Origin: Bisporella sp. PMI_857
Lineage: Eukaryota > Ascomycota > Leotiomycetes > Helotiales > Helotiaceae
Assembly (NCBI GenBank): GCA_021307315.1
Contig: JAJSPD010000137.1
Coordinates: forward strand, 1-62,652
DNA: 62,652 bases
Direction: 5' to 3'
Shown here piece after piece: positions 7,412 through 54,653 of the stretch (its first letter is position 1; each line of letters begins with the position of its first letter). The notes under the pieces are model-generated. The model saw only the letters and a list, made by a program, of their open reading frames with translations. It was not told where the DNA came from and made no database searches. The position numbers were made by a program, and so were the translations under genes.

Positions 7412-7428
7412 CGGCCTTACACACGCCG
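7412..7428. promoter_or_regulatory. CGG-N11-CCG site, P450 promoter (proximal)
   Basis: Inverted CGG triplets are spaced by 11 bp, 113 bp upstream of the P450 ATG. This is the spacing bound by Gal4-type Zn2Cys6 homodimers. The inner bases do not carry the CGGA extension seen at most other sites here. Confidence 0.5.
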
Positions 7429-7590
7429 ATCCGCTCCGCTCACCAACACTATCATAGGGTCCGCAAAGGTGGGGGATAAACACAAAGTGACGTATGATTG
7501 TGAGTACTGAACTAATAATCCTTGTACTGCCCCGGATTAAAAGAATGCTGAGTAACTATGTCTGGGTTGTGATTATTTTCGAGCTGAAAA

Positions 7591-7607
7591 CGGAGGGATA
7601 AGGTCCG
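7591..7607. promoter_or_regulatory. CGG-N11-CCG site, P450 promoter (middle)
   Basis: CGGAGGGATAAGGTCCG has CGGA/TCCG arms and the CGGAG half-site. It lies 292 bp upstream of the P450 ATG. Confidence 0.55.
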
Positions 7608-7672
7608 ACCTATAGACCAACCTATTCAACACCGACAAATGTCTCACGTCGTCGTGGGGGCTGGCTAGTAGT

Positions 7673-7689
7673 CGGAGATTCGAACACCG
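7673..7689. promoter_or_regulatory. CGG-N11-CCG site, P450 promoter (distal)
   Basis: CGGAGATTCGAACACCG carries the CGGAG half-site. It lies 374 bp upstream of the P450 ATG and 65 bp from the middle site. Confidence 0.5.
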
Positions 7690-8774
7690 CGCCTGATCTA
7701 TATTATATTTTCTTGAGGGACATAGAGCATAGATAGCATGCTGCAACAGACTGCAACTAGGTGACACAATAAGAAACAATAATTTATGTGTAATATAAAA
7801 TGATTTGTCTTACAGGTGACGAAAGATTATGAATATTAATCCCTACAATTTTTTTTCTCCAGATATTGCTGCGATACTAATGGTAGTAATGAACTGTACG
7901 AACGCGTCCCACACAGAGTTACAGAGGCTAATTTTCTTGGAAATAGGTGCATTGCACGAATTGTAGTTAATAGGGTTTACAGAGGCAGATTTCCATTAGA
8001 TGATGAGACAAACCCATGACATGTTTCCTGCGATTGATGGCTTTTTGAAGAACATTTGCATTGTCTGAAGGAGAAAGATACCGAGATATGAAATTTCAAG
8101 GAGGTTGCGATTATCTATATTGTGTTCGGGTTAAGTAAAAACTATCTACTGGTTTGAAGAAACCGTATCGAGCTGCCCAGCCTCATTTGTAGTGAAATAA
8201 AATGCACAATTTGCAAAACGTGAAGGTTTTGTTAAGGCAAGCTTACGCCAAAGCAGCTCCGAGAATCATTTAAAACCGTTCCAGAGAGTGGACTTCGCAT
8301 GATAGCAATAGCGGCTGCCGCTTGTGTTTGGTATCATATCTCCCGACGCTCAGTCACTGACACTTGATGACATGAATATCATTTTCGTCAATTATCCCTT
8401 TTCACCTTCTCGATGTGTTACCGTAACCACGAATCAACTTTCAACAAACTTAGACTTTGCTCGGAAAGTTGGCTCTAGGCCTGACAGCAAGATGTCTCTC
8501 ACCCATTAACGAGGGTTCCAAATATCCATTGAGCGGGACTACGATTCTTAAAAAATTGTTAGGGAATCAGAAAAAAATGATTGTTTTTAGATGTCTTAGT
8601 AAGCGTTATGTGGTTTAGAGGCCCTAGTTCTGCAGAAATTAGAAGTCTCACCATTGGCGGTCATAAGTAATCAAGAACGAGCGGGCGTAATGATATAGAA
8701 AATAGAGTTAACTGATGACAGAAACTTAGCGCAACGGCAATCCCGAAGGACAATCGACATTACGCTTTATATAC
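7690..8774. other. Intergenic, between P450 promoter and OYE1 3' end
   Basis: No gene is supported. A 61-codon ORF at 8324-8509 shows no family resemblance or splice support. The left part belongs to the P450 upstream region and the right part is the downstream region of the OYE gene. Confidence 0.5.
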
Positions 8775-10169
8775 TCATGGGAGTCTTACTCGCAAAGACT
8801 GACTTGGCCATGCAACATCGACACCCAGTTGCCATGCTACCCTCAACACCCATTCTGGTTCTCTCAAAAATTGCCTAGCAACTAAGATAACATCTGCCAT
8901 AGGCCCAAATTCACCACCTTGCTCTACCATCGACGCAGCAAGTCGCGATTCTGCCCTCATAGCCCCAATATCATTTGGTGACTCAGCCTTATTCCAATGC
9001 TCTTGTAGAATTTCCTTCGCAGTTTCCGCCTCGGTGATCAGGCCAACAGCACCGATGAGCAGATTTTTATTTAGCTTCCTTACTTCTTGTCGGATTCTGG
9101 CAGCCTTTGATATCTGATAGTTTTTATCAGCGAACATGTCCGTCTTTTGATCCTTATGATTTCCTCCACTGCTGACGTCTAGTAAGTCAATTCCCCAGTC
9201 AAATAACTCCTTTGCCAGTCTCATCGAGTCCTCGAGGTCCCAGCTGCCACCAAATTTCTTCTCAACCTCGGTACCTTCCAACCAGTCTGTGCAGCTGAAT
9301 CGAAAAAATAGTGGCATATCGGCCGGAATTATTCGTCTAATCTCCTCAACAACCTCCATGGCGAGCTTCGTTCTTCCTTCAAAGCTTCCACCATATTTGT
9401 CAGTCCTCTGATTGGTAACCGGACTTAGGAATTGATGCAGGAGGTATCCATGTGCGGAATGGATCTCGATAAGGTCAACGCCTGCCTTGACTGCCCTTGC
9501 CGCGGCCTTTCCAAAATCTTCGACCAGCTTCTCAATCTCCGACTCCAACAATGCTCGAGGAGGGAAAAAACCGCCTTCCTCTGCCAGGCCAAGTCCATCC
9601 CAACACTGATCCATACCTCCCATAGGCCCAACAACATCATCTGGCCACCCACCAACGTCTTCGGTGGACCTGATACTGCCCGCACCCCAGCCTCGCTCGC
9701 TTCTGTACCGCGATGCGATCCAAGGGGCAGTTGTGCTCGCCTTTCGACCTGCGTGAGCCAGTTGAATGCCACACGCAGCGCCTTGGCTGTGCACAAAGTC
9801 GACAATACGCTTGATCGGTCCGATCTGTGACTCGTCCCATAACCCAGGGCAGTTGGGGGTTATCCTGCCATTTGACTGTACACTGGTGGCTTCGATGAAT
9901 ACCAGTCCTGCGCCTTTGAGTGCGTATTGACCTAGCGTCACCAAGTGGTAATCTGTCAAGTGACCAGCCTCTGGCCCTGACGGTGCAGCAGAATATTGGC
10001 ACATGGGAGAGACAATGATTCGATTACGCAAGGTAACATTGCGAATTTTCAGTGGAGTAAACAGCGTAGGAGTTGTCTTGTCGACCTTACAAGGTGCACC
10101 AGGAGTTCTGGCATGACGGGGAGTGAAATAGGGTGCTGCAGCCGATGGGTTCAAATTTGTTGTTTGCAT
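8775..10169 (-). CDS. NADH:flavin oxidoreductase (old yellow enzyme, class III/YqjM-like)
   Basis: This intronless gene encodes 464 residues, an FMN-binding TIM barrel. It begins with an Ala/Pro-rich leader, then TLFTPLKIRNVTLRNRI and SPMCQYSA, in which Cys is the redox-tuning residue of YqjM-type enzymes. The substrate-binding region reads QLAHAGRKAS. LIEIHSAHGYLLHQFLSPVTN and DKYGGSFEGR are typical of the family, and the phosphate-binding end is near residues 390-440. Such enzymes reduce activated C=C bonds of enones with NAD(P)H. It lies between the P450 and the ADH on the same strand. A CGG-N11-CCG site sits 261 bp upstream. It is longer than bacterial YqjM (about 340) mainly through internal loops. 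Confidence 0.92.
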   Translation of the reverse strand: MQTTNLNPSAAAPYFTPRHARTPGAPCKVDKTTPTLFTPLKIRNVTLRNRIIVSPMCQYSAAPSGPEAGHLTDYHLVTLGQYALKGAGLVFIEATSVQSNGRITPNCPGLWDESQIGPIKRIVDFVHSQGAACGIQLAHAGRKASTTAPWIASRYRSERGWGAGSIRSTEDVGGWPDDVVGPMGGMDQCWDGLGLAEEGGFFPPRALLESEIEKLVEDFGKAAARAVKAGVDLIEIHSAHGYLLHQFLSPVTNQRTDKYGGSFEGRTKLAMEVVEEIRRIIPADMPLFFRFSCTDWLEGTEVEKKFGGSWDLEDSMRLAKELFDWGIDLLDVSSGGNHKDQKTDMFADKNYQISKAARIRQEVRKLNKNLLIGAVGLITEAETAKEILQEHWNKAESPNDIGAMRAESRLAASMVEQGGEFGPMADVILVARQFLREPEWVLRVAWQLGVDVAWPSQSLRVRLP

Positions 10170-10429
10170 TGCGACTGCTCAGCTTCTAAAATGTGACTAT
10201 TTGTGCTTTTTAGTCACCATTCCGCTCAAGCTTGATATCAGCAGAATCGACAGCAATTTGGTTTCTGAAGTTTCGCACGGAGTGGTTTAGAGGGGTCTTT
10301 AATGCCGGTCCTCTACTTTGACAGCATTTACAGTTTCTGCACGTGCATACATAGCTTGCTTTTTATCTAAATAATTCCACAAAAATTGCCATAAATTATG
10401 GTTCATGAAACGGAGGATTAAAATCATGA

Positions 10430-10446
10430 CGGAGTATCAAACTCCG
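10430..10446. promoter_or_regulatory. CGG-N11-CCG site, OYE1 promoter
   Basis: CGGAGTATCAAACTCCG is the best palindrome of the set, with 6-bp arms CGGAGT/ACTCCG around ATCAA. It lies 261 bp upstream of the OYE1 ATG. Confidence 0.6.
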
Positions 10447-12131: not shown

Positions 12132-13533
12132 CTAAAACCTGGGAATCATGCCGTTGGGTTTAAATACAACCTTGTTCAATTCAGCGCGTTCGAATCTTTC
12201 TAACGCATCTGAGAAAGAATTGTCCAAGTCAGGGAGAATTAAATCAATGAAGCCCATATTCTCGACCGTGCTTTGATTACGAATCAGTGCTTGAAGAGCA
12301 TCTGCGAAAACGTGTCTGGCTGGGCAGCGGCCGAATTGGATATGGATATTTTTGTTGTAGCAATCTGCAGCAGAAAAGGGAAGCTCGGCATTATGGACAC
12401 CTATCTCAAATGTAAGCAAATTATCTGTCTCTACAGTTGGGACTCTCTTGCCTACCGAAAGAACTAATCTTTCCACCGGGGCAAATGATGTCAAAGGCTG
12501 TCCTTAAAGCCACGCTAAGACCGACGCCTTCAATTACCGCATGGACACCATTGCCGTTTGTGGCATCCCGAATCTCTGTAATCACATCGACTTCCTTGAA
12601 GTTTATAGGTATACACCCTAAACCCTTCGCAGTAACAAGGCGAATTGGGACTGAATCAATCGCGAATACCTTCGCAGGCTTATATTCGAGAGCACAGATT
12701 ATTGCACAAAGCGCAACAGGTCCGCAACCTATGACCGCGATGCTCATATCCTTCCATTGGCCGCTCGGTGTACTACTAAATGCATTCTTTGCGGCATTAA
12801 AACTAGGGCCAGTCAAAGTCAGAACTTCATGTTCACAATTTGCCACGTTGTGCCACAAATTAGATACTATACGTACCCAGTAGGAAATATGTCAGTCATC
12901 AATATCATTAGTTCACCTAGATTCTCTTCTTTGGGGACATGGAATAAGGTGGTATCAGCCAAGGGAACTCTAAAATACTGCGCCTGAGAGCCGTCCAAAG
13001 CGACGGATCCGAAGGATTTGGATTTGGAGCAACGTCCGGTCATTCCTCTCATGCAATGGAAGCACTCGCCGCTCGAGGAGAGTCAGAGATTTATTTTTTT
13101 TCTTGCTCGGAAGGGGCATGACAATTACCAACTGACAGTGAATGGTGCTATCACGTAATCACCTTCGGCGAAGTTCTTGACCTCACTACCAACTTTGTGA
13201 ATGAAACCCATTCCCTCGTGACCACAGATGTAGCCGGGTTCCATATTGATTTTGGAATGCCCTCGATATCGATGTAGCTCACTAAGAGTCGACGTGTTAG
13301 GATCAAAATACTTAGAATTTGAGATTGCAATGGGTCGGACCTTCCACACAAAGCTGCCGAAGTTGTCTTGATAACCACATCTGTTGGTTGATCTAAGCGA
13401 GGGACTAATGAGCGAGGCAAGACAATCAGTAATTTGTTGTGTAAGGTGCGAGGTTCGTACTAGGTTTTTGTTCCAGTCTTATATCATATGGACCCCGGAA
13501 TACGAGTGCTTTCATACTGACTGGACCGGACAT
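12132..13533 (-). CDS. Zinc-dependent alcohol dehydrogenase (MDR family)
   Basis: Six exons (13533-13461, 13404-13341, 13281-13129, 13071-12877, 12802-12456, 12400-12132) join to 366 residues. Five introns of 55-74 bp explain every apparent frame change. The catalytic zinc ligands are Cys44 (ALCGSE), His67 and Glu68 (GHEGMG). The structural zinc Cys97/100/103/111 sit in CGECFHCMRGMTGRC at canonical spacing. The NAD fold is VIGCGPVALCA. It should oxidise an alcohol (or a glutathione-independent formaldehyde-type substrate) with NAD(P). It is divergently transcribed from the aldehyde dehydrogenase across a 653-bp shared promoter, so alcohol-to-aldehyde-to-acid oxidation is a natural reading. 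An internal ATG at 13515 is an alternative start. Confidence 0.9.
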
Positions 13534-13869: not shown

Positions 13870-13886
13870 CGGGGAAAGTTTACCCG
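13870..13886. promoter_or_regulatory. CGG-N11-CCG site 1, ADH/ALDH promoter
   Basis: CGGGGAAAGTTTACCCG has CGGG/CCCG arms. It is 337 bp from the ADH ATG and 301 bp from the ALDH ATG. Confidence 0.5.
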
Positions 13887-13949: not shown

Positions 13950-13966
13950 CGGACTCATACTCTCCG
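13950..13966. promoter_or_regulatory. CGG-N11-CCG site 2, ADH/ALDH promoter
   Basis: CGGACTCATACTCTCCG has CGGA/TCCG arms and reads CGGAG on the opposite strand. It is 221 bp upstream of the ALDH ATG. Confidence 0.55.
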
Positions 13967-14186: not shown

Positions 14187-15889
14187 ATGATCCCAGAGCT
14201 ATTATTCAAAAAATCCATTCCTTACGAAGTAAGACCCTATAGAATCGTATATGGCATTATGACTCATGCGCAGTGGTAGTTTGAAGAATTATCCTTAATC
14301 GACAACAGATCCTTTATTGATGGTAAGTGGGTAATGGCAGCCACTGGCAAGACTTTTCAGGTTTTAGGTTAGCTCTCGAACACTTATACAAGCGCCTCAT
14401 TTTAACAAGTGAGCCATATAGACCCAGAAAACGATGCCATAATTTGCGAGGTAGCCGACTTAGACAGTGCAGATACCCGTCAAGCTATTGAGGCTGCAAA
14501 CAAAGCCTTTCTGATGTATCGAACCATGCCTCATCGCGAGAGAAGATGGCTCATGAGACGATGGGGTGATCAGATCAAAGCTAACAAGGCTGATCTTGCC
14601 GCGTTATGTACTATTGAACTCGGCAAGCCGTACACTGAATCACTGGGTAGTGTGCAGTATGCTATTGATTTCATCGACTGGTTTGAAGGCGAAATTGAGC
14701 GAACTTTCGGTGAAACTATCCCTGCAGCGCGAGGTAATAATCGAATCCTCACTGTGCGAGAACCCCAGGGGGTCGTCGCTTGCATCACACCTTGGAATTC
14801 ACCAGTAGCGATGGTGACTCGCAAGGTGGGTGCTGCTTTGGCTGCTGGAAACACAGTAGTGTGCAAACCTGCGCCTGAAACACCTCTTTGTACTATCGCT
14901 TTGGCAAAGCTCTTTGAACGTGCAGGCGGTCCCCAGGGAGTTTTTAATGTCGTTACGGCAGGTCCCGAGAACACCCCTCTTGTTGGTCAAGAGCTGTGCA
15001 GCCATCCGGCGGTAAAGCATTTGAGCTTTACGGGCTCGACTGCCGTTGGCCGTATCCTCAACACCGAGTGTGCCAAAACAATTAAGAAAACCAGTCTTGA
15101 ATTGGGGGGTAATGCACCATTCATTGTCTTCGAAGATGCCAATATTAAAGAGGCGGTGTTAGGTGAGCTTGGGATATGTGATATTTCACCCATCCAATAC
15201 CAAACAACATATTCTTATCAAAGTTCAACTATAATTCATAGTTCATGCTAACTATTCCTACAGGCTTAATTTCGTCTAAGTTCCGTTCATCAGGACAAAC
15301 TTGTGTCTGCGCCAATAGAGTTTTCGTACACGCTTCCATAATGAATGATTTTGCAGACGCTTTAACAGAGGGTCTAAAATACTCTCTCGTCTACGGCTCT
15401 GTCTGGGATAGAAAGGTCAATTTTGGACCCTTGTATTCAAGAAAAGGTATTATGAAAGTCGAAGATCATCTCGAAGATGCCGTTAGGCACGGCGCTACTA
15501 TCCACTCAGGTGGTAAAGATACTAGTCTTGGACCAAATTTCTTCCCTGCTACTGTGGTGAAAGGAGGTAGAGCGGGTATGAAATTCCTGACCGAAGAGAC
15601 ATTTGGTCCCATAGCGTTTTTAGTGCCGTTTGAGGATGAAGATGAAGTTATTGAGCTTGCAAACAGCAGTGATGTAGGCTTAGCTGCGTACTTCTACACT
15701 GAGAATATTTCGCGCTTGTGGAGAGTGAGTGAAGCATTAAAGGTGGGTATGGTCGGCGCGAGAGTTGGGCTTGTCAGTGCAGCAGAACAACCTTTCGGCG
15801 GCGTTCTTCAAAGTGGACTAGGCCGAGAAGGTGGTAGTACAGCACTGGAAGAATATTTGGACATCAAGAGTATAACCATAGGGATCTAA
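14187..15889 (+). CDS. NAD(P)-dependent aldehyde dehydrogenase
   Basis: Four exons (14187-14228, 14280-14367, 14422-15162, 15264-15889) encode 498 residues. The tiny first exon (MIPELLFKKSIPYE) is inferred from a good donor (GTAAGA) and the continuity FEELSLIDNRSFIDGKWV. The acceptor at 14421 rather than 14408 is chosen because it restores FQVLDPEND. The general base is Glu270 (LELGG) and the nucleophile is Cys304 (GQTCVCANR), 34 residues apart as usual. FTGSTAVG is the cofactor loop. It resembles succinate-semialdehyde dehydrogenases and broad-range ALDHs. The expected role is oxidation of the aldehyde formed by the divergent ADH or by the pathway's ring-opening steps. Confidence 0.93.
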
Positions 15890-16416: not shown

Positions 16417-18021
16417 CTATGACTTGAAGTCTCCGGCACCTTCGGTACCTTTGGTTGTCGAAACAGGCTTCGCAATAGCGAGCTGAGCGGCAGCTCGACC
16501 AGCTCGACGACCAAAGACTACACCGGATGTTAGACCGCTTCCTCCAGGATAGTTCGAGTAGAATAAACCTCCCATCATTTCGCCAACACAAAAAACTCCA
16601 GCAATCTTTTTGCCAGTCACTGTACTGATAACGTGTGCATCTTCAGAGTCAACCGACAAACCGCCAAATGTGAAGGTCACTCCGCACGTAACCTTGACAG
16701 CAAGAAATGGTCCTTGGTCCAATGGAAGTGCCCAATTGGACTTCGCCAGTGGCAGTTTCATCGACAAGGATTGGGTCGAGAGACCATCTTTTATTGCAGG
16801 GTTCCAAGTAGCATTAGGATTCTCCTTACGATGGGCGTATACAGCCTCATTGTATGAGGACAAAGTTTTAACGAAAGCTTGGCTGTCGTGCAGCCCTCGC
16901 TGAACACATTTACTAGCAAGCTCCTCAATAGTTGCAGCTGTGATTCTCTCCACACGCTCTTGGCGGTACTCTTCTGAGCGTAGCCAAGGAATTGTGCGGG
17001 AGTCCCACACCTGGAACGCGGTGCTTTCCGGTTGTGCAAGAATTGCCCGGCCAAATTTAGCGTAGGTGTAATTTCTTAAATCTACACCTTCATCAACAAA
17101 TCGTTTACCCTCCATATTGAGCATGAGGCCCAAAGGGTAGCCTGATTTGGTGTGTTCATTGGAGGCTTCCCGATCTCCTGTATTAGGGTCTGCATTCGCA
17201 TCCCATGCAACGGAATGGCACCCAGACCAATTACCCGTTGGTTGCGCAAAGAGGTCCCGCATAGCAATTTCCAAGCAACCACCATTGTTAAAGGGGGTGC
17301 CACGCACTCTAGCGATATCCCAGTTTGGTCCTAGGTATTGACATCGCATCCGTGGATTTGCCTCGAACCCTCCGCCTGCGAGGATGAGAGCGCCCGCTGT
17401 GATGACAATGTTGTGTCCTTTGTGTTGCACTGTTGCGGAGATGGTCCCACTTATCCCTGGATCTACTGATATACTTACTAGTGGCGTCTCCCACCGTATG
17501 TCCACTTTATGTCGCTTGGCAATATTCATGTGGTCTACAATAAGACCTTTACCACCGTCCTCTGTTTTCAAAGATAGTCCTCCCCAAAACTTGAACCGAC
17601 CATCAACTTGATACGCTTGACGATCGAATGAGAGTTGAAATCGTATTCCATTTTGTGCTAGCCATTTTATAGCCGAGTTGGAATCTTGCACTAATGTCTT
17701 GCAGAGCTTCGGGTCAGATCGTCCCATACACACACGCCGCATGTCATTTGCAAAATCGTCCTCAGAATAAGGGTCTAGATCGATCTTTTGTGAAAGCTTG
17801 TCGTCCACATTATTCACAATCGGTAGTAGGTCCGAGAGACCTTGGTGTACAATCCGATATGCTCCAGCTGTGAAATAACTGTTGCCACCAGCCCAGGACT
17901 CAGGGCAGCTGTCGATGAGTAGGACTCTCTTAGCTCCATTCTGGGCGGCAGAAATAGCTGCCGAAAACCCTGCATTACCGCTTCCAACGATAAGGACGTC
18001 GCATTCTCTTGGTATCGTCAT
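16417..18021 (-). CDS. FAD-dependent dehydrogenase, TcuA/fumarate-reductase-flavoprotein family
   Basis: This intronless gene encodes 534 residues from the ATG at 18021. A further 45 codons upstream are open but look like leader DNA, and MTIPRECDVLIVGSG is the natural start. The FAD dinucleotide fold is VLIVGSGNAGFSAA, followed by SWAGGNSYFTAGAYR as in tricarballylate dehydrogenase (TcuA). VCMGRSDPKL, ILAGGGFEANP and the C-terminal GLFYSNYPGGSGLTSGVVFGRRAG complete the FAD_binding_2 fold. Family members dehydrogenate carboxylic acids or 3-ketosteroids. In this cluster it could desaturate a ring or an acid intermediate. It is convergent with the ALDH gene and on the same strand as the regulator gene that precedes it. 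Confidence 0.88.
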   Translation of the reverse strand: MTIPRECDVLIVGSGNAGFSAAISAAQNGAKRVLLIDSCPESWAGGNSYFTAGAYRIVHQGLSDLLPIVNNVDDKLSQKIDLDPYSEDDFANDMRRVCMGRSDPKLCKTLVQDSNSAIKWLAQNGIRFQLSFDRQAYQVDGRFKFWGGLSLKTEDGGKGLIVDHMNIAKRHKVDIRWETPLVSISVDPGISGTISATVQHKGHNIVITAGALILAGGGFEANPRMRCQYLGPNWDIARVRGTPFNNGGCLEIAMRDLFAQPTGNWSGCHSVAWDANADPNTGDREASNEHTKSGYPLGLMLNMEGKRFVDEGVDLRNYTYAKFGRAILAQPESTAFQVWDSRTIPWLRSEEYRQERVERITAATIEELASKCVQRGLHDSQAFVKTLSSYNEAVYAHRKENPNATWNPAIKDGLSTQSLSMKLPLAKSNWALPLDQGPFLAVKVTCGVTFTFGGLSVDSEDAHVISTVTGKKIAGVFCVGEMMGGLFYSNYPGGSGLTSGVVFGRRAGRAAAQLAIAKPVSTTKGTEGAGDFKS

Positions 18022-18589
18022 CTTGAATGATATGTATACTGATAGGACTAACCAAAGCACAATGTTGTATGGTAAATATGGAAGTGTGACAGCGAGGGGA
18101 AGTGAAAATGAGAGAATTCTGACACAAATATAAAAATTAACTTGCTGCACAACCAACCAAAGAAGAACTAAACCAAGGGCGATGTAACCAGGGCTGGAAG
18201 CGGAGGTTCAGCCACTACCATTTGCACACTCGCCATACGCTAAAATCACAAACATAGGAGTGCAATTGACTAGATCTTGCTTAATTCCTCCTACCCATTA
18301 ACGGAGCTCCGTAGCCGAAGGGCAAAGGTTCTTATCCCAGCAGCATAGCTTGCGGAGGTTGGGAGTCCGTAAGAGCTAGCCAAGACTTCCCCGTAAGCTA
18401 ATCCTCCGCAAATTATCTCAAGCCTAGTTACAAGCGACTTAAGCCAAGTCAATGGCTCACTAGGCTTTGTCACGCACAATGGATTGTAATTGAGCGTGAG
18501 TGAAATGGTCCCATTTTCGTAGCCGCTTCTTTACATCCTTAGCTGGCTCGTAGAGGTCGTTATTCTCCAGTATCAGGTGTCGTTAGTAA
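18022..18589. promoter_or_regulatory. Promoter region of the TcuA-like gene
   Basis: The 568 bp between the regulator's stop codon and the flavoprotein ATG contain a CGG-N11-CCG site and nearby CGGAGCTCCG (18302-18311). An ORF at 18291-18479 shows no family resemblance. Confidence 0.5.
18353..18369. promoter_or_regulatory. CGG-N11-CCG site, TcuA-like gene promoter
   Basis: CGGAGGTTGGGAGTCCG lies 332 bp upstream of the ATG. Its first nine bases (CGGAGGTTG) are identical to the site at 49412 in block B. Confidence 0.55.
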
Positions 18590-20862
18590 TCATTGCAATC
18601 CTACTTCATCCAAATTTGGAAGAGACATATCCGAAAAGGACATTGCGGGCATGTTCATCAATCCATATAATGGGTCATCGGGCAGATCTGAAACCATTTC
18701 TGCTGTTGTGACAGATTGCATATTCATAATTGAAGTATTTTTGGTAGGAAACATACTAAAGATTGCATCAAAATCGAACGAGGATGGCGAGTAGTTAGGT
18801 TCATTGACCTCCGCTTATTTAGTGTTAGCATTTGGAATTGCTCCAGACTTTAATTACTTCCTTACCCAAACTTAAGTCAATTTTACGTGCGTCTATCAGT
18901 CCTCGGATGATTTTTAAAGGCTTAGAAACACCTGGATTAGCTAGACATAGTTCGTCGAGACAACCCAAGCTAGCTGCAAGGAGGGATGAATACTCTCCAG
19001 ATTGACCACTACTTGCCTCGCCAGCGGCATTCCTGACATGAATCGTGCTTGCGACATATATCACATAACTCAGTAAATATGGTGCCCCTATAAGGCCATA
19101 AGCATTCTTCCATGCTAGAGCGATTTTCGTGATACTTCTTGCAGCGGACGTGCAGCGGCCCCATGATAATGAAGGAGTGGCAGTAGAACGTAGGTGCCCA
19201 TCGGATATGAATGGTCGGTGTAGTAAAATTATTAGAGAATGATAGATGCCATGTAGGTTCATTACGTTGGGGGCAGGGTATGGTGTAGGATCGAATTCAT
19301 CCTGCGACAACTCATACGCAAGATATTCAGGCAAGTTCTCTTGCCAAGTTTGAAGGGCATTGTCGACAAGTTGTAGACTAATTTGACCGTTGCGTGGTGT
19401 TGCACCAACAACATAAAACGTTGCAATGATCTTGTTCATGATCCTCGAGAGTAAGCAAAGCTGTTGGAAGGTTGCGACTGAATAAATAGGTGAAGGCCTG
19501 CAATGGCCGGCATTGTATGCGGTATTGGGAGACTGAGGGTCGATATAAGGCAGATAGAGCTCCTGGTCTTCGAATGTGTCCATGAAGTCTCGCGAAACAT
19601 GCGAGTCATGCAAGTTGATCGCTACTGGGCGACCAAGATAAAGGCTCTGGAGCTTATCACAAACGAAAGCGCCCCAGAATACTCGACGACGAAGTTCCAC
19701 GCCCTCTGGAGAATTACTTGTGCCTTTGGGATCAAGGTGTAGTCCAAGGTCGTATACCATTCTAAGTGCATATCCCGTATACAACCATCCCTTCGAGGTC
19801 TCGCCCCGTGCATTGTAGGTGGATCCGAGTAGTAAAAGTCCCACAACCGTGGGCACCGTGGGATATATCAGTAGCAAATCCTGCGCAAGTTGTTCGTCAC
19901 ACTGCTGGAAGAACCAACGACCTGCTGACTTCGGATCAACAGGATCGTCTCGAACTTCTATCCGACCAGAGAATTTGCTCGAAGAAGCAAATATTGCGTA
20001 CAGCAAGAACTTGGAACAATTAGGACCATTACACATGAGATCTCGCATTATGGCGGGTCTATAAGTCAGCAGGAAAGTATGGTGTTGTCTACTCCAGTGA
20101 AGATCAAGTAAGTGCATTGCAAGCTCAGTGGGAACCCCATGAACATCAGGCATGAAGGCAAGGTGGCGCTCGCTTTGCCTCTGCAAGGCTGCCTTAGCGA
20201 TCAAAGAGTTCCTCACATTTTCTCTTTCCAGGGAGGCTTCTGACTGCGTAGATTTATTGACATCTGTGTCGGGACAATGAAGGGCGGACGAGGGCCCAAA
20301 GCTGCTGGGTTTTCCAGCTTCATCTAAAGAAATGAATGGACTGATATCGCATTCCTCATCTGAAGAAGCAGCTAGACTCTCGGGACTACCACAGCGACTA
20401 CGAAGGGTTGCATTGGCTGCTGAGGTCTTTGGTATTGATGGCGAAGATGGTTGCGGTTGACCCCGATAGCACGCCAGATCATTGTCGTCTTCCGGAAGCT
20501 GAAGGCGACTATTTCGAACTTGGATTGCAACTAAGAGCTTTTCTCGAAGGTCCGCAGGTGAGTTTTGAAGCTTGATAATGAAGGACTCCAAAGTAGAGCG
20601 TTGCTTCTTAAGTTCTTGGATCTCAGCCAGAGTCGGTCTAGACCTTGTTGTCAATCTTGAATCGCTATGAGACTTCTACGGACATTTGTTCGATAACATA
20701 CCTTTTTGAGGGCAGCTCTAATCGATAAATACAATTTATATTCTGGGCGGCGCACTTGGCACATTGAGGACGTGCTGTATCACAGCGGATCTTCCGAGAT
20801 CGACAGAAGACGCACGCCTTTGCAAGTGATTTGGGATGGTCCTGCGTCGTTGTACGGCCCAT
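18590..20862 (-). CDS. Zn2Cys6 transcription factor, candidate cluster regulator
   Basis: Three exons (20862-20702, 20643-18866, 18813-18590) encode 720 residues. The binuclear cluster CVFCRSRKIRCDTARPQCAK has CX2CX6CX6CX2CX6C spacing. A linker and a likely coiled coil (TLAEIQELKKQRSTLESFIIKLQ) follow. This is the layout of Gal4-like proteins that bind inverted CGG sites as homodimers. The fungal-specific regulatory domain spans roughly residues 210-480 (GETSKGWLYTGYALRMVYDLGLH, RRRVFWGAFVCDK). The third exon is inferred: a GTAAGG donor, a GCTAAC branch site and a 52-bp intron replace an early stop with an acidic, Met-rich tail (DFDAIFSMF...LPNLDEVGLQ) typical of activation regions. It sits among the genes it probably controls. 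Its own promoter has no N11 site. Confidence 0.88.
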
Positions 20863-21351: not shown

Positions 21352-23370
21352 CTAATAATACGCACCCCTTGTCTCTTCCATCATATGCCTTAATCTCTCT
21401 CGTGGAGGCGCGGTCTCGATCTCGCAATTCAGGTAGGCAGTTATGTCACCATTTGGATCAAACTCACTCAAGTGAAAGCCATTGCCCAAGAAGGAGAATC
21501 GATTCTGAGACTGATACTGAATGTCATAGTCTTCCCATTGTGGTTCCCGAACAGTCTCGATGAATGAGATTCGCGACCCTGGCCACATGACAACAGGACC
21601 ATCAACACGACCCTGTTTGAACCAACTAGGGCATGGATCTGCCCAGCAAGTGCGTGGGAGATATGCACGACAATGCTCCATAAAATCATCAATCGACTGC
21701 TTTTTGGGCGTCATCTGGCGGATATGCTGCACAACCATTTTACGTATAACTTTGACGAAGTAATTCGACAAAGCACTGTGCAGCGGCAAAATCGATCCCT
21801 GAGCCACAGGAGTAAAGGGTCCAGTAAACATAAAGTAATTTGGCATATTTAGGGCGGCTATTCCTAGATATGACTCAGGAACTTCCTTCCACTGTTCGGA
21901 CAAGATGGCATCGTTCAGACCTAATACTGGGAAACGTGGTCGGTAGGAGGTATCAAACCCTGTTGCGCAGATGATAACATCACATTCGTACTCAATGCCT
22001 TTGTGGTCAATGAAACCAGAAGGGGTTATCCTGGAAATTGTCTCTGTAAAAACAGTAGATTTTTCACCAGCAAGGGCTTCCAAATACCCGTTCCCAGGAG
22101 TCGGTCGGCGGCAGCCCACATTAAACGTCTTCGGGATGACTTTGTCCACGAGTCTCAGATCGTGTCCCAGCTTGGTACGCATTTCGTTGTAAGAGAACTA
22201 GTTCCGAGGTTAGCTTCATAAAGAATCCAAATGTTATGTTCAGTCAGTGTAACGTGAAACTCACCTCATTAGCCTCTTGAGATTCGGCACTGTTTCTGAG
22301 CACCGCCTTATATCGCTGATTCAGTTCGGCCTCGATCGTTTTTCTATACTTTCGGTACTTCTCTGGATCTTTTCGCCACTTTGCCTTCTCTTCTGCCCCA
22401 TCTAGACGATCTCGTCCTCAATAAGCGTCTACAGGCCCAATATATGGTTACTCACACTCAAAGTTAGCGCCACCCTTCCCAGCATATTTCTGTGCAAATC
22501 CAGCAGTGATCCAGGTAGGACTTCTGACCCAGGTATATAAATGTGAGACCAGAGGGTAGATTGACGCAACCACTTGAACACCGGAGCTCCCTGAACCTAT
22601 TACTGCGACTCGCTTTCCCGTCAGATCATAATTTTCGTCGAATCGCGCTGTGTGAAAAAGGCGGCCGTGAAATGTGTCCAATCCTGGAATGTCGGGCCAC
22701 CTCCAAGCACTGAAGGACTGTCAATCTATGTATGGCAATTACCAGGACAATGGCCTTACTTCAAGAACCCTGTTCCATTTAGGAAGACGTTGCAATCTTC
22801 GTCCCATACTTCAGAGCCATCAGTTTTAGCTAGAGTTAACGTCCATGTCGAGCTATCATCATTCCACAACGCCTTTTTCACTTCTGTATTCAATTGAATA
22901 TAATCCATAAATCCTTCGTCGACAGCAATACTCTTCATGTACTGCCATATCTCCTTAGAACCACTGTAGAAGTGTGACCAATCCGGATTAGGTCTCCATG
23001 CGAATTGATAACTCGCACTAGGCCCATCGCATGCGCAACCGGGGTATCTGTTTTCGTACCATGTCCCCCCAACATCGGAATTTTTTTCAAAGCATTTGAC
23101 TTCAACGTTTAAATCAGACAATGCCTTCAGTGAGTGATGCAGGAAGTCAATTCCTGCGGCACCAGCTCCCATCATAATCACTTTGAAAGGTTTCCCATTG
23201 TACCCCGGCCATTGCTCACCCAAAGTATGAGGCGAGCATCCGTAACCGCTCACCAATGGCTGCGACCATTCACTGTAGTGTACGGGTCGGGATGATGAGT
23301 TGGGATGCGGCCCTGGGCCGTTGCTTCCAATGGATCGAGCGCCATGTCCGCTGGCACTAAACTCACCCAT
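21352..23370 (-). CDS. Baeyer-Villiger-type flavin monooxygenase
   Basis: Four exons (23370-22760, 22709-22456, 22401-22265, 22197-21352) encode 615 residues. The first Rossmann motif is MGAGAAGID, then the BVMO motif GGTWYENRYPGCACD. The FxGxxxHxxxW-type motif appears as FHGRLFHTARFD, with Phe in place of Trp. The second Rossmann motif is VIGSGSSGVQ. The C-terminal region has NVGCRRPTPGNGYLEAL and ICATGFDTSYRPRFPV. Such enzymes insert oxygen next to a carbonyl using NADPH, giving esters or lactones. It is divergent from the SDR gene, and a CGG-N11-CCG site lies 195 bp upstream. An alternative acceptor (GACGAG) would add three residues at exon 3. The chosen one aligns better with relatives. 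Confidence 0.9.
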
Positions 23371-23822
23371 GACGGTATCACCTAGTGAGCGAAAACTAGA
23401 AATATCAATGAGAGATTCTATGCTAGCCCAAGTCGTTGAATTATATGTGTATAAGTATTTATGTCTTAGTCATGGAAATTAGTGTAATTCAAATATGGTG
23501 ACGTTAAATAGTATGTTCTCCACAAAGTTGATAAGTGGACCTTTCAACACAGTATACTTGGAAGCGGGGGATGTTTCTCCGTCCAAGGGTATCCACGGTC
23601 TTCTCCCGCCTGCTGGCGACCTTTGCATTCAAGAAAGCGGCGAATAGGGCATCGAAATAATTCATCCAGCCCGCGGAGAAAGCAAAGATGTATTTTACCA
23701 AATTGAGATCATGATTGGCTTTGGACAAAGTTTTGGTTATTACAGGAAGTGGGATGCAGTATCTTTTCCCCTAGTTTAAAGGGAACAGATAACTTAATGC
23801 TGGCAATGCAAGTCTATTCATC
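23371..23822. promoter_or_regulatory. Divergent BVMO/SDR promoter
   Basis: This 452-bp head-to-head promoter carries one central CGG-N11-CCG site. It has no coding potential beyond random ORFs. Confidence 0.6.
23565..23581. promoter_or_regulatory. CGG-N11-CCG site, BVMO/SDR promoter
   Basis: CGGGGGATGTTTCTCCG reads CGGAG on the opposite strand. It is 195 bp from the BVMO ATG and 242 bp from the SDR ATG. Confidence 0.55.
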
Positions 23823-24711
23823 ATGCATCAGGAATACGTGTTTATTACGGGCGGTGCTTCTGGAATTGGCTACCAAATTGCAAAGTTCCTCACCGATAAA
23901 GGGCTCAAAATTTTTATTGCTGATTTAAATGAGGTATTGCTAGAGTCTACGGCAAAGGAACTCGGTGCTTCCTGTGGCGTTATGGATGTGACAAGCTGGG
24001 AATCTCAAGTCAAGGTCTTTAGCAAAGCAGTAGCTGAGTTTGGTCGCATTGACTATGTATACCCTGTTGCTGGCATTGGAGAGAGAACATGGCTACCTCC
24101 GACGGTGATGGCGCAATTTGGGCCGAATTATTCTCGGCCAGATCTCCGTGTTTTGGACGTGAACATCGCCGGCCTTATTTATACTGTTTCCCTAGCTGTA
24201 CAGCAATTTAGACGGCAAGAGTTAGGACCAAGTGGTTACAAAGGGAAAAGTAAGTGCTGAGGATTCGTATCTGTACTCATATTAGACTAACACAAATACC
24301 TCCAAAGTCCTCTGTGCTGGTTCCGTGTGTGGCATCTACTGTTGCTCCAGCCTACCAATCTACACAACATCAAAGTTCGCCATTACAGGTCTGGTACGAT
24401 CATACGGAAAGCAGCTCCCTCTGGAAAACATCACCATGAACGCCTTCTGTCCAAATGTGGTCCGCACCAGCTTTTCTTCAAATGCCTTCTATTCCAAATT
24501 GGAAAAGGAGCATCTTCTGACTCCAATGGAAGGTGTACTAGAAGTATGTGGAATGCTATTAGGAAGCGATGGAACTAGTGGGGAATGTTTTGAGATCGGT
24601 CCAAATTATGCCAGAGGCCAAGGACTGATCAAGCCAAAGTTTCCGAGCTTTGTAGATGAGGATTCTAGGCGCGTATTTGATCAACTGGAGGGGAGAGGAA
24701 ATGTCAAGTAA
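23823..24711 (+). CDS. Short-chain dehydrogenase/reductase
   Basis: Two exons (23823-24249, 24308-24711) encode 276 residues, the usual classical SDR length. The cofactor motif is GGASGIG near the N-terminus, followed by an Asp after the second beta strand (IADLN), suggesting NAD(H) preference. Catalytic residues Ser148, Tyr161 and Lys165 (YTTSK) are present, and the NAG-like motif reads VAGIG. It probably interconverts an alcohol and a ketone, for instance supplying the ketone used by the divergent BVMO. The 58-bp intron has a GTAAGT donor. Confidence 0.9.
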
Positions 24712-25200: not shown

Positions 25201-25596
25201 GACAGAGTCCGAGTACAATTGAACTTGATCGCTCGATGTAGCGCCGGTGTCTTAACTGCTGTCGGTATCCCAATCACGTGGGTAGTATCTAATCAACCTT
25301 GTTATGCTAAGAGAGCACTCGCCAATGATGTTCAAATCATGGTGTGTAATTCTGCTGGAATCGCGGCACCATTTCTCTACGCAAGCTCCCAGGCCCCAGG
25401 ATATCGTACTAGCTACGCTAGCACGATTGGGCTTCTAGGGCTAGCGATAAGCATTTATTTCTTAGTGCATATATATTATCGGAGGCAAAACGCATCTAGA
25501 AACGCTGGCAAGCAAGAATGGAGAATACAAGGAAAGAGTAAGGAAGAAATTGCCGAAAGGGGTGAGCAAAATCCACGATTCAGATTCACGGTATGA
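25201..25596 (+). pseudogene. 5'-truncated MFS transporter (Dal5/allantoate permease type)
   Basis: Only about the last 125 codons survive. They contain the final transmembrane pair (GIPITWVVSN..., ASTIGLLGLAISIYFLVHIYYRR) and the cytosolic tail ending NPRFRFTV. The words KRALANDVQIM and GIAAPFLYAS are typical of the Dal5-like anion:H+ symporter family of fungal carboxylate and vitamin transporters. The frame has a stop at 25198 and no start codon of its own, and nothing transporter-like lies upstream. It is a remnant. It suggests that the cluster once contained an uptake transporter for its substrate. Confidence 0.7.
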
Positions 25597-27958: not shown

Positions 27959-28015
27959 ACTTGTTCGAATGGCAAACGTTGTAAAGTACTTAAGATTAAG
28001 CTTGACGTCTGGCAT

Positions 28016-47921: not shown

Positions 47922-49314
47922 CTATAAACCACTGCCTTCGACGTTCCCACTCAAGCTAAGCAAATGTTGTTTCGCATCTTCCCACTCTTCTCCATCCCGC
48001 CAGTAGCCATAGACCACAGGCTCTCTGCCTGGAAAGCCGGCGCGAGACAAGAGATTGAGCCAGTCCCAGTGACAACTCTCTTTCCAACCACTAGATTTCC
48101 ACTTATTGAGATCCATATCAGGTCGGGAGCTTATCGTTGGCAGATAAGTCGTAAGAGATTGGTCGTGAGTAAAACAAACTAATATCGACGGGGATCCGTC
48201 AAACTTGATCAGTTGATTGACAGATCGTTGTGCGATTCTAGGTTCGTTATAGGCTGACGTGGAAATTGTAGAGATCTCGTGGAATGGGGTCGTCCGTGGA
48301 TTGAAAGAAGGATGCTCGAGCGTCGTTGCTTGGGGATGACGGTCGGTAAAGATACTTGCTGGGCAAGGCATGGGGAGGGAGTTGTCTTGATCCAGAGTTC
48401 CTTTAGGAAGAGGATCAGGTAGCGGATAATCCGGCGACGGCCTGAAGCAGCTTGCAGAATGGCAAATATCGCCACCAAGGAAGATGAACGTGCTTTCTGG
48501 CTCCGGGGTTGTGCGAGCAAGACCACATATATGCCCAATACAGTGACCAGGTGTGTCTTTCGTTCAAATGTTAGCCGGAATTGTAACACCATCTGATATG
48601 ACTTAAGTTGACATAATCATATAGGCAGAACAAGAAGGCGCGTACCTAGAAGATAGAAAGATCCATCCAAAAAGAAATCAATTGCTCGAAAACCTCCTAT
48701 AGTCAACTCTTGCGAAGAAAAATCAAGTTCTCGTAATTCTCTGTCTGTAAAACAATCGGCTGGAACTGGCGAGATGGGATTGTTAGGGTAGCCCGGCATC
48801 AATGTCGGCGATGCCGTAAAACCTGGTCCTACAACGAGAGATGTTGAAGGTGGAAACAACGATACATCGCCAATGTGATCCCAATGGTAATGAGACCATA
48901 CGACGGCCGCTAAGAAGTAGATGCTAATTAGCTTGGCGAATTGGCCTCGAAGCTTTACTCCCAATATTGCCACTTACATATTTGTCCAAGTTCAATTCCA
49001 TTCTCCATAAGGACCTCGGGGACATCTTTCTCAACTCTAAGTGAAGGAATACTATTTCCGCCTCCAAGTCGACTCAGAACGACAGCAGGAAGATTCCAGT
49101 AATCTTTGCGAATGCCGAGATCAAACATCACTTTTTGCCCTGATACCTCATGTTCAATCAGGAAAGCAAGGTCAGGGACTTCGAAAAAGTCTTGAACCTG
49201 TCCAAGAGGTTTGATGAACGACTCTGCCTTGATAGTGAACGAACAACTCGTATCAACAATGCGCACGCGCACGATGCTTGTGGAACAGGGTATATTCAAT
49301 TGACCTCTCGTCAT
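47922..49314 (-). CDS. Metallo-beta-lactamase-fold hydrolase (lactonase-like)
   Basis: Three exons (49314-48978, 48909-48646, 48556-47922) encode 411 residues. The metal motif HxHxDH is H119-Y-H121-W-D123-H124 (WSHYHWDHIGD). A further ligand region is DTPGHCIGH, and FIFLGGDICH supplies the bridging Asp and His. DLAFLIEH...KVMFDLGIRKDYW is the usual N-terminal sandwich of acyl-homoserine-lactonase-like fungal proteins. Lactone hydrolysis is the family activity most consistent with a Baeyer-Villiger partner, but glyoxalase-like thioester hydrolysis is possible. It is divergent from OYE2. Two CGG-N11-CCG sites in the shared promoter (98 and 236 bp from the ATG) tie it to the block A regulon. Confidence 0.87.
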
Positions 49315-49411
49315 TTTAAATATTTAATTAATTAAACTTAATTAAGATGATCTGAACTTTGTTTAACACCAGATTGGCGGGCTCGTCAAACACATGGACC
49401 AACATCATGGA

Positions 49412-49428
49412 CGGAGGTTGAGTCTCCG
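49412..49428. promoter_or_regulatory. CGG-N11-CCG site 1, lactonase/OYE2 promoter
   Basis: CGGAGGTTGAGTCTCCG has CGGAG/CTCCG arms. It lies 98 bp upstream of the lactonase ATG and shares nine leading bases with the site at 18353. Confidence 0.6.
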
Positions 49429-49549
49429 CCGAAAGCTATTCTTATATCCGCACAACTAGCGCACTAGGATTCTCGGACAATCGTACAGCAATAATGTATA
49501 TCATTTCCTTCGAACGTAGAGTTGCCAAGCGGGTTGTTTCCAGACTTGA

Positions 49550-49566
49550 CGGATGTCTGCTCTCCG
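49550..49566. promoter_or_regulatory. CGG-N11-CCG site 2, lactonase/OYE2 promoter
   Basis: CGGATGTCTGCTCTCCG has CGGA/TCCG arms and reads CGGAG on the opposite strand. It lies 149 bp upstream of the OYE2 ATG. Confidence 0.55.
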
Positions 49567-49714
49567 GTGATCCCTGACGAGTCGACCGAAGGCAGCCGAA
49601 CAATCTCGCCTTCGACCTCTCCCTGTCATTTTCGGTCAAGGGTAGATCATTCAAAGACTAGTCTCGGTATCATATTTACGCTTTCATCAGTTCTATGACG
49701 CTCAAGCTCTAAAG

Positions 49715-50859
<1,145 letters not shown>

Positions 50860-52473: not shown

Positions 52474-53125
52474 GGTCGCCTGCAAATGAATTGGTAGTGT
52501 CAGGAGCCGCACCAAGTCGCAGATGGTTATTGGTTCGAGCGCAACAAATTAAGACAACAAAAAAAGTTCAGGAGTTATGAAAAGCATATAGCCTATAGGG
52601 GATCAGGGTGAAGTTAAATAACAAGTTGGAACAATGTGGGCTTTGCTAGCGGAGATAAGGATAAGCCAAGGCATGAATAGAAAAAGGACGAACCGAGGCA
52701 CAAATTGCTTACCTATCACTAAAAGGATTACAGTTCCTCTACAGAGTAGATCATGGTGCTCCAAGCTCGCGGTGACCCAGGATCACTATCATCCCGTAAC
52801 ATTGTGATCCCTCACAATTCCTTCAATATATAGAACAGGTCTTCAGTACTTTTCATAGACTTTAGCCACCTCAGCTATCAAATATAATTTGATTACGATA
52901 ATAACTTTCAACAATATTATTTATCTATTATCAAACGCGACATTTCTTTATTGCTCAGACCACTTACCAGCTTTCACCGTCAGCATGAACTAAACATGGT
53001 TCAGTTCACGCAGTTAGGAAACCTCACCAACACACAACTAGAACAACACAAACCTGTGCGCCTTATCCCAGCAAGCATAACTGTAATTGTAACACATTAG
53101 GCTATCCCGTAGGGAGTATTAAGGT
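52474..53125. other. Intergenic between two thioesterase-like genes
   Basis: These 652 bp hold the promoter of the LcsJ-like gene and the 3' flank of the 4HBT gene. They are AT-rich, with no N11 site and no gene. Confidence 0.5.
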
Positions 53126-53589
53126 CTAAAGTTTACTCCTCTCTAAACCAACATAAAGTTCCTCGAGTCCTTTTCTTAATATTTGACTAATCCCGCTCTG
53201 CGATGGTCTCCCTGTTGAACGCTCGACAAAGACGTGGACACACTCCGCTACTACCTTGACTTCATCATGGCCTCGCTCAAACACGCCAACTTCATATGCA
53301 ACGCTGGATTTGCCTAGTTTGTTTACGCGAAGGCCTACCTCAGCAATGGAAGGGTAGGCGATTGAGGAAAAGAAGTCCGTATGAGCGTCAACAGCGACTC
53401 CATACATTTCGGCTGTCGGCGGATGGAAGTTGCAGTGCTCAATAAGATAGGCATATATGACGGAATCAACCCTAGATCTTCCTATTAGAAAGGGAGTATA
53501 TTTTATAACATCATTAACCGGGGGCCTTACAAGAAACCATAGACCGACTTGTTCATGTGGTCATACATGTCATTGTCGCACCTAGACAT
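53126..53589 (-). CDS. 4HBT-family acyl-CoA thioesterase-like protein
   Basis: Two exons (53589-53531, 53471-53126) encode 134 residues. CDNDMYDHMNKSVYGFLVDSVI corresponds to the 4-hydroxybenzoyl-CoA thioesterase active-site region (consensus WxDxDxxxHxNNxxY), with Asp and His present. HTDFFSSIAYPSIAEVGLRVNKLGKSSVAYEVGVFE is the hot-dog sheet. The N-terminus is a few residues shorter than typical, so a small upstream exon may be missing. The 59-bp intron has a GTAAGG donor. It may release a CoA-bound intermediate. A CGG-N11-CCG site lies 376 bp upstream. Confidence 0.78.
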
Positions 53590-53964
53590 TATTAATTAGT
53601 ACGGTGGCTGATGATTTTAAAAACGTGAAGTATCTTCACTCTGCTAAACCGCTGTATTCTATGTTGAAAAAATAGCAAGAGACCAAAAAAACAAGGATTC
53701 CAATGAATGCAAAGTAAGATATATATACGCATGTAATTATCTGAGATAAACTTGCCATCGCGTGCGATAGTCGAGGTGATAGGGGTAGTCTAGTCGGCGC
53801 CGCGCCTTAAGCTCTAAGGCAGATACCATTGCAACGGCTTTACGGGGCAGCAGTGGGAAGCTATGTAGGTATGTTCGGCAAAAATTAAAAATGATGTAGG
53901 TTGAAAGTGAACCACCCAGAGTTCAATTAATTGCCTAGCATTTAAAGCAGGAATACAAAGGTTC

Positions 53965-53981
53965 CGGATTTAGCTGAGCCG
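53965..53981. promoter_or_regulatory. CGG-N11-CCG site, 4HBT side
   Basis: CGGATTTAGCTGAGCCG lies 376 bp upstream of the 4HBT ATG. It has only the triplet arms, so it is among the weaker members of the set. Confidence 0.4.
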
Positions 53982-54636
53982 AGGCTTGTGAGTGTATTTT
54001 ATCTACGTGTGCGGCCAAGCCTCAGGAGGATTTCGGATATGCGCGAACAACTGATATTCCCGTTGCGCTAGTCTCACAACATCTCTTTGTGGCGCTAGTT
54101 CTTGTTCTCGCTTAACTCGGCGTTTCACTAGGTCGTTTGATGAGGTGCGTAGGTCAGGTGGATGTTACGGTCTTGTATTACTCTGATAGCAATAGAAGAT
54201 GGAAGGTCTAGTCCGTGGGGTATGTCCCTATACAGCTGAACATTCGGGTCCCCGCATACCCTGAACAGCAGAAGCTTCAGAGTCTTCAACCCCTATAACT
54301 ACAATGGCCAATAGCCTGTAACTGCTACATGCTTAGGGCCCTATATCCAACAAGTACTACTGCGATTGCGGAATAAGAATACTTTCATTCTTATTAACAT
54401 CTCGATATTAGTCAGAGAAATGACAGGGGAGTAATAAGAACCTTTAATTATACATAATTTCACTCATTTGTAGTCCGAAAAAGTCACTTTGTGGTGCGCT
54501 GTCTCAGCGATTCCCGAGAAGTGTTAGTTTTGCATTCGCGCATCACTATTTTTTCGCTGACTATATGGGAGTGACCCTGTAGGAGGACACTAACACGCCA
54601 GTAGCTGACTTTCGCCAAAAGAGCGAGCGTCAATCT

Positions 54637-54653
54637 CGGGAAGACCTGACCCG
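54637..54653. promoter_or_regulatory. CGG-N11-CCG site, reductase 2 promoter
   Basis: CGGGAAGACCTGACCCG lies within longer 7-bp arms TCTCGGG/CCCGAGA (54634-54656). It ends 137 bp upstream of the reductase 2 ATG. Confidence 0.55.

What the first reader, a model, noticed from the sequence alone, without database searches (positions are those of the whole stretch)
7412..54653. A CGG-N11-CCG regulon marks seven promoter regions across two gene blocks
Reading the whole window for CGG followed exactly 14 bp later by CCG, I found 17 matches. Twelve lie in seven intergenic regions totalling about 6.7 kb: 7412, 7591, 7673 (P450); 10430 (OYE1); 13870, 13950 (ADH/ALDH); 18353 (TcuA-like); 23565 (BVMO/SDR); 49412, 49550 (lactonase/OYE2); 53965, 54637 (4HBT and reductase 2). 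Five lie in the remaining 56 kb (2818 in repeat DNA; 35104, 35176, 35430 in the GC-rich SGNH gene; 40937 in the C2H2 gene). Random expectation at this base composition is roughly 4-5 for the whole window. Other spacings (N9, N10) gave only one or two promoter hits. CGG-N11-CCG is the Gal4 homodimer spacing, and a Zn2Cys6 protein with an adjacent coiled coil is encoded at 18590-20862.
Basis: partly seen in the sequence, partly recalled or inferred. Interest (0 to 1): 0.87.

Follow-up and report, generated by a model that had tools for sequence, protein, structure and literature searches.

The report
Gal4-like switch for fungal enzyme cluster
In a helotialean fungus, twelve CGG/CCG DNA palindromes with an 11-bp gap sit in front of eleven predicted enzyme genes and are likely the docking sites of a Gal4-type regulator encoded among those genes; a related regulator elsewhere in the genome has sites with the same gap in front of its own neighbouring genes.

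Summary
All 17 CGG-N11-CCG matches are at the stated places; 12 are intergenic, 98-374 bp from the nearest modelled start codon. In nine intergenic regions of the two blocks (7,390 bp) N11 occurs 12 times and each of the other 30 spacings 0-2 times; the gene bodies (18,357 bp) hold none. N11 ranks first of 40,926 gapped trinucleotide pairs, and 0 of 2,000 shuffles reach 12.

(2) The adjacent Zn2Cys6 protein TF1, with a corrected splice site, aligns gap-free to Gal4 through zinc cluster, linker and coiled coil. (3) The genome (Bisporella sp. PMI_857) holds a TF1 paralogue and an FAD-enzyme paralogue on contig C49; that neighbourhood has six N11 sites in promoters. (4) TF1 and the FAD enzyme stay linked in other Ascomycota.

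Best reading: TF1 homodimers bind these sites and co-activate an oxidative, probably catabolic, cluster. Binding and expression are untested. It is a well-supported new member of a known kind.

The parts
7412..7428 (.). CGG-N11-CCG site, 113 bp upstream of the P450 start
7591..7607 (.). CGG-N11-CCG site (1 mismatch to CGGAG-N7-CTCCG), 292 bp upstream of P450
7673..7689 (.). CGG-N11-CCG site (1 mismatch), 374 bp upstream of P450
10430..10446 (.). CGG-N11-CCG site, exact CGGAG-N7-CTCCG, 261 bp upstream of OYE1
13870..13886 (.). CGG-N11-CCG site in the divergent ADH/ALDH promoter
13950..13966 (.). CGG-N11-CCG site (1 mismatch) in the divergent ADH/ALDH promoter
18353..18369 (.). CGG-N11-CCG site (1 mismatch), 332 bp upstream of the FAD enzyme
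23565..23581 (.). CGG-N11-CCG site (1 mismatch) in the divergent BVMO/SDR promoter
49412..49428 (.). CGG-N11-CCG site, exact CGGAG-N7-CTCCG, in the divergent lactonase/OYE2 promoter
49550..49566 (.). CGG-N11-CCG site (1 mismatch) in the divergent lactonase/OYE2 promoter
53965..53981 (.). CGG-N11-CCG site, 136 bp upstream of the 4HBT thioesterase gene
54637..54653 (.). CGG-N11-CCG site, 137 bp upstream of KPR2
18590..20862 (-).
5553..7299 (-). cytochrome P450 gene (3' end approximate)
   Evidence: Pfam p450; start
8775..10169 (-). OYE1, NADH:flavin oxidoreductase
   Evidence: Pfam Oxidored_FMN; start
12139..13533 (-). zinc alcohol dehydrogenase (3' end approximate)
   Evidence: Pfam ADH_zinc_N; start
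14334..15889 (+). aldehyde dehydrogenase (start 14259 or 14334)
   Evidence: Pfam Aldedh; starts
16417..18021 (-). FAD-binding_2 enzyme (fumarate reductase / tricarballylate dehydrogenase-like)
   Evidence: Pfam; PDB
21352..23370 (-). Baeyer-Villiger-type flavin monooxygenase
   Evidence: Pfam; PDB
23688..24660 (+). short-chain dehydrogenase (3' end approximate)
   Evidence: Pfam adh_short
47922..49314 (-). probable metallo-beta-lactamase-fold lactonase, named from an HYHWDH motif (recalled); the pieces scanned have no Pfam match
49715..50680 (+). OYE2, flavin oxidoreductase; best PDB match chanoclavine-I aldehyde reductase (3' end approximate)
53126..53829 (-). 4HBT thioesterase-superfamily gene
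   Evidence: Pfam; start
54790..55791 (+).
   Evidence: Pfam ApbA

Best explanation
The twelve CGG-N11-CCG sites are likely operators bound by homodimers of TF1, the Gal4-type Zn2Cys6 regulator encoded at 18590-20862, which would switch on the eleven flanking enzyme genes together. Shown by sequence: the sites, their restriction to intergenic DNA in the two blocks, the extended half-site, TF1's zinc cluster, the gap-free fit of its linker and heptads to Gal4, and N11 sites in promoters around a TF1 paralogue and an FAD-enzyme paralogue. Inferred: each zinc cluster of a TF1 dimer reads one CGG; linker and coiled coil hold the half-sites 11 bp apart; sites in divergent promoters serve both genes; TF1 acts as an activator under some inducer. 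Also inferred: the pathway is catabolic, turning an alicyclic or terpenoid-like substrate by P450, ene-reductase, dehydrogenase and Baeyer-Villiger steps into a lactone that is hydrolysed and oxidised to an acid.
For: Promoter-only N11 enrichment with spacing specificity and shuffle controls. Gal4 is TF1's best PDB match, gap-free over 64 residues; hydrophobic heptad positions +16, +19, +26, +30, +33 from the sixth Cys in 91-95% of 44 family sequences; the Gal4 Lys18 equivalent is kept (role from passages of PMC5559640). Paralogous neighbourhood on C49: six N11 sites in promoters, expected 0.47. TF1-FAD linkage in other Ascomycota. Thirty window ORFs scanned with Pfam (of 46 of at least 120 aa) show no polyketide synthase, NRPS or terpene synthase, which fits catabolism.
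Against: No binding or expression data. TF1's own promoter has no N11 site, nor has the paralogue's, so no autoregulation is visible. Gal4 Arg46 and Arg51 (backbone contacts) are not at the aligned positions of TF1. Heptad position +23 is hydrophobic in only 34%, and +29, outside the Gal4-like a/d register, is hydrophobic in 95%. A second Zn2Cys6 gene lies in the window. Block 2 has no synteny support from KPR2 relatives. The region limits on C49 were set after the sites had been seen.
Confidence: 0.7

Rival explanations
1. The sites are real operators but are read by another Gal4-spacing regulator encoded elsewhere, for instance a CLR-2-type protein, and TF1 has a different target.
For: Neurospora CLR-2 is said to bind CGGN11CCG (passages of PMC6498484). 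Genome-wide N11 (6,120) exceeds N10 (5,157) and N12 (5,633), as if other regulators also use the spacing. TF1's own promoter lacks a site.
Against: TF1 lies among the genes with sites, fits Gal4's linker length, and its paralogue is likewise near promoters with N11 sites.
Confidence: 0.17
2. The second Zn2Cys6 protein in the window, TF2 (26759-27958), is the regulator.
For: It lies between the two blocks.
Against: By eye no heptad repeat follows its zinc cluster (translation), so a dimer with fixed spacing is not predicted; Pfam finds only the zinc cluster.
Confidence: 0.05
3. The pattern is chance or composition: a reader's selection among many possible spacings.
For: The whole-window excess is modest (17 vs 6.9), other spacings reach 13-14 in the window, and the promoter regions were examined because sites had been seen there.
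Against: 12 against 0-2 for each of 30 other spacings in the promoters, none in gene bodies; shuffles that take the best of 31 spacings do not reach 12; the C49 neighbourhood repeats it.
Confidence: 0.03

Closest known systems
Gal4 and UAS-GAL of Saccharomyces cerevisiae
   Same: Inverted CGG with 11 bp between, CGGAG/CTCCG flanks like the ideal Gal4 17-mer (recalled), zinc cluster, linker length and coiled-coil register.
   Different: Different genes and probably a different inducer; two backbone-contacting arginines are not at the aligned positions; no autoregulatory or Gal80-like part was looked for.
CLR-2 / ClrB of filamentous fungi
   Same: Reported to bind CGGN11CCG in an ascomycete (passages of PMC6498484).
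   Different: Controls cellulase genes; orthology to TF1 was not tested and no CLR-2 sequence was fetched.
Proteins named Nit-4-like or nirA-like in public records
   Same: TF1's own sequence family (47-67% identity among the 120 listed), repeatedly on the same contig as the FAD enzyme.
   Different: Only names given by sources; I know of no binding site for this family. NIT4 and NirA sites as recalled do not have this spacing.

Membership tests
Gal4-type Zn2Cys6 homodimeric regulators (CGG-N11-CCG) | CX2CX6CX6CX2CX6C zinc cluster | tested here: met
   sequence pattern; alignment
Gal4-type Zn2Cys6 homodimeric regulators (CGG-N11-CCG) | linker length and coiled-coil register as in Gal4 | tested here: met
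   gap-free 64-residue alignment with the corrected splice; heptads in 44 sequences
Gal4-type Zn2Cys6 homodimeric regulators (CGG-N11-CCG) | base-reading Lys (Gal4 Lys18) | tested here: met
   Lys at the aligned position, invariant in the 21-sequence alignment; role from passages of PMC5559640
Gal4-type Zn2Cys6 homodimeric regulators (CGG-N11-CCG) | backbone-contacting Arg46 and Arg51 | tested here: inconclusive
   aligned residues are Ser and Leu, with Lys-Arg one and two positions on
Gal4-type Zn2Cys6 homodimeric regulators (CGG-N11-CCG) | inverted CGG sites 11 bp apart in target promoters | tested here: met
Gal4-type Zn2Cys6 homodimeric regulators (CGG-N11-CCG) | dimer binding to the sites and activation of the genes | not testable with these tools
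   needs EMSA, DAP-seq or expression data
CLR-2 orthologues | orthology to Neurospora CLR-2 | not tested
   no CLR-2 sequence was fetched

The most novel reading that the evidence does not exclude
Duplicated Gal4-type regulators split two paralogous gene neighbourhoods into separate regulons: both keep the 11-bp spacer, but TF1 reads CGGAG...CTCCG while its C49 paralogue reads CGGR...YCCG without the following G. So 8 of 12 window promoter sites but 0 of 6 C49 promoter sites lie within one mismatch of the extended palindrome. The TF1-FAD cassette behind this is an old, unnamed metabolic control unit of the Pezizomycotina.
Probability: 0.3. Interest if true: 0.6.

Novelty: new member of a known kind. 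Interest (0 to 1): 0.46.

Why it matters
It gives an anonymous, generically named transcription-factor family found in many Ascomycota a concrete predicted operator, a target set and a paralogous control. It offers a route to the substrate and to switching on an enzyme cluster (Baeyer-Villiger monooxygenase, ene-reductases, lactonase) of interest in biocatalysis. The two paralogous regulons would be a small natural experiment on how regulators keep spacing while changing base preference after duplication.

Tried and rejected
The extended palindrome as a genome-wide regulon was rejected: the genome has 31 exact copies and the reversed control pattern has 39, so copies elsewhere look mostly like chance. 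I read 19 stretches holding 15 of the 29 exact copies outside the window. C215 has four strong sites, but among HET, ankyrin and zinc-knuckle ORFs. C113 has two exact sites in a region with BVMO-like, alpha-galactosidase and Fungal_trans ORFs; its Fungal_trans protein is only 25% identical to TF1; left open.

Synteny of block 2 was sought through KPR2 relatives. There is a clean orthologue set (12 others at 67-81% identity, then 54% and below), but I saw by eye no contig length shared with the TF1 or FAD lists.

Literature: exact motif strings, motif and enzyme terms, zinc-cluster spacing, CLR-2 DAP-seq, Bisporella (8 of 20 listed). No listed title or abstract start concerned this cluster or family; the library is open-access only and searches returned nothing at all. 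Only passages of PMC5140021, PMC6498484, PMC6080790 and PMC5559640 were seen.

My first splice of TF1 added two residues (used). The family alignment pointed to an acceptor further on, which restores the family linker.
Full report
WHAT WAS CHECKED. The window is one whole contig (C43, 62,652 bp) of a 55.64 Mb fungal genome. A protein named from Bisporella sp. PMI_857 (P0112) is encoded residue for residue, 648 of 648, on contig C49 of the same genome, whose length, 57,068, equals that listed for the protein. The organism is therefore Bisporella sp. PMI_857 or a near-identical strain (genus in Leotiomycetes, Helotiales).

OBSERVATION. All 17 CGG-N11-CCG matches are present. With my own gene models (translations; Pfam; starts), 12 lie between genes, 98-374 bp from the nearest modelled start, and each of eleven genes (P450, OYE1, ADH, ALDH, FAD, BVMO, SDR, lactonase, OYE2, 4HBT, KPR2) has at least one within 450 bp. 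The nine intergenic regions of the two blocks (7,390 bp, two of them without sites) hold 12 N11 and 0-2 of each other spacing from 0 to 30; 18,357 bp of gene bodies hold none, against 0-5 for other spacings. Genome counts: N10 5,157, N11 6,120, N12 5,633. The genome expectation for the regions is 0.81 (P 8e-11). Dinucleotide shuffles average 0.57 and 0 of 2,000 reach 12; with the best of 31 spacings per shuffle the maximum is 6 in 500. Among 40,926 three-plus-three dyads with gaps 0-20, CGG-N11-CCG is first and its overlapping form CGG-N10-TCC second; the next ranks are AT-rich dyads with P down to 7e-7, so the P scale there is rough. The background is 244 kb, 189 kb of it picked for holding exact sites, which works against the result. 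The whole-window figure alone (17 vs 6.9, P 8e-4) would not convince.

EXTENDED SITE. Of 24 half-sites, 15 have A and 14 have G in the two positions after CGG. CGGAG-N7-CTCCG occurs exactly twice in the window (10430, 49412) and six times with one mismatch, all eight being promoter sites. The genome has 31 exact copies and 1,012 with up to one mismatch, so 0.035 and 1.14 would be expected here (P 3e-5 for eight). CGGR-N9-YCCG occurs 1,232 times in the genome and nine times in the promoter regions, against 0.16 expected.

THE REGULATOR. TF1 (18590-20862, minus strand) has a Zn2Cys6 exon and a Fungal_trans domain. An alignment with 20 homologues showed that the splice acceptor lies a few bases further on than I first assumed; the intron is 64 nt. 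With that splice the DNA-binding region aligns to Gal4, its best PDB match, without a gap over 64 residues. In 44 sequences (TF1 and those of the 120 listed relatives with this Cys pattern) hydrophobic residues stand at +16, +19, +26, +30 and +33 from the sixth Cys in 91-95%, at +23 in 34%, and also at +29 in 95%. The linker generally sets half-site spacing (passage of PMC6080790). Gal4 Lys18 reads the CGG and Arg46 and Arg51 touch the backbone (passages of PMC5559640); the first has its counterpart in TF1, the other two are not at the aligned positions. TF2 (26759-27958) has a zinc cluster but, by eye, no heptads behind it.

THE REPLICATE. Apart from TF1 itself the genome has one near-full-length relative of TF1 (49%, C49) and two partial ones (45% and 31%), and one FAD paralogue (66%, C49). 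The two C49 genes start about 11 kb apart. Reading C49 18001-52000 (loci) gave nine N11 sites in 34 kb (expected 3.7, P 0.015): three inside ORFs (24428, 51378, 51438) and six at 36364, 39815, 39866, 43095, 45072 and 45769. Other spacings reach 10 in the same 34 kb (N15, N17), so the point is again the location. The six lie upstream of class II aldolase/ADH, mitochondrial carrier/FAD, an amidohydrolase and a DUF1932 dehydrogenase (Pfam) and of a gene that I read by eye as a transporter (two ORFs without a Pfam match); starts. In about 4.2 kb of promoters N11 = 6, other spacings 0-3; expected 0.47, P 1e-5; 0 of 2,000 shuffles reach six, and with the best of 31 spacings 0 of 500 (maximum 5). I set the region limits after seeing the sites, so the P is indicative. 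The C49 sites keep R after CGG in 11 of 12 half-sites but not the following G (1 of 12, against 14 of 24 in the window); 0 of 6 against 8 of 12 lie within one mismatch of the extended palindrome (Fisher 0.013, post hoc). Neither regulator gene has an N11 site in its own promoter.

CONSERVATION. Of 412 TF1 relatives at E up to 1e-20 and 7,874 FAD relatives at E up to 1e-50, 120 each are listed (one FAD row is the window's own). By eye I found 19 pairs with the same longest-contig length, eight of them on contigs under 60 kb, the shortest 5,299 bp. Four named genomes give neighbouring locus tags (Fusarium nematophilum 012804/012805, F. longipes 8779/8778, Emydomyces testavorans 004321/004320, Tolypocladium paradoxum 07286/07284). 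One Aspergillus nanangensis record is a fused BVMO-TF1 gene model, though its best listed FAD relative has a distant locus tag (P0077, P0173), and two F. nematophilum records fuse a mitochondrial carrier to TF1. TF1 and the FAD enzyme, sometimes with BVMO or carrier, thus form an old neighbourhood. Block 2 has no such support.

HOW IT LIKELY WORKS. TF1 dimers would bind the N11 palindromes, several of them in divergent promoters, and activate the enzyme set. The enzyme content suggests oxidation of a ring compound to a lactone, hydrolysis and oxidation to an acid; this is inference from family names. What is shown is the sequence pattern; binding, induction and substrate are not.

LIMITS. No promoter DNA of other species could be reached with these tools; gene models lack transcripts; paper searches cover open-access text only.

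Noticed in passing
window 26759-27958 (-): A second Zn2Cys6 gene (TF2, 399 aa from the modelled start) without a Fungal_trans domain and, by eye, without heptads after the zinc cluster, between the two blocks; not mentioned in the finding.
   Followed up: partly
window 25201-25596 (+): A short ORF without a Pfam match that reads like the C-terminal end of an MFS permease (by eye); possibly a transporter fragment.
   Followed up: no
L007/L008 (C215:474001-493139): Four CGG-N11-CCG sites within one mismatch of the extended palindrome in 7 kb, among HET, ankyrin and zinc-knuckle ORFs near a contig end.
   Followed up: partly
G000 C241:855264 and 887561; C263:290946 and 323243: The same two 17-mers at the same 32.3 kb distance in opposite orientation on two contigs, which looks like a duplicated segment.
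   Followed up: no
L001-L005 (C113:14001-64000): Two exact CGG-N11-CCG extended palindromes 36 kb apart, one nearly identical to the window's 23565 site, in a region with BVMO-like, alpha-galactosidase, Fungal_trans and hydantoinase ORFs.
   Followed up: partly
genome-wide (G000): CGG-N11-CCG (6,120) mildly exceeds N10 (5,157) and N12 (5,633), as if other regulators also use this spacing.
   Followed up: no
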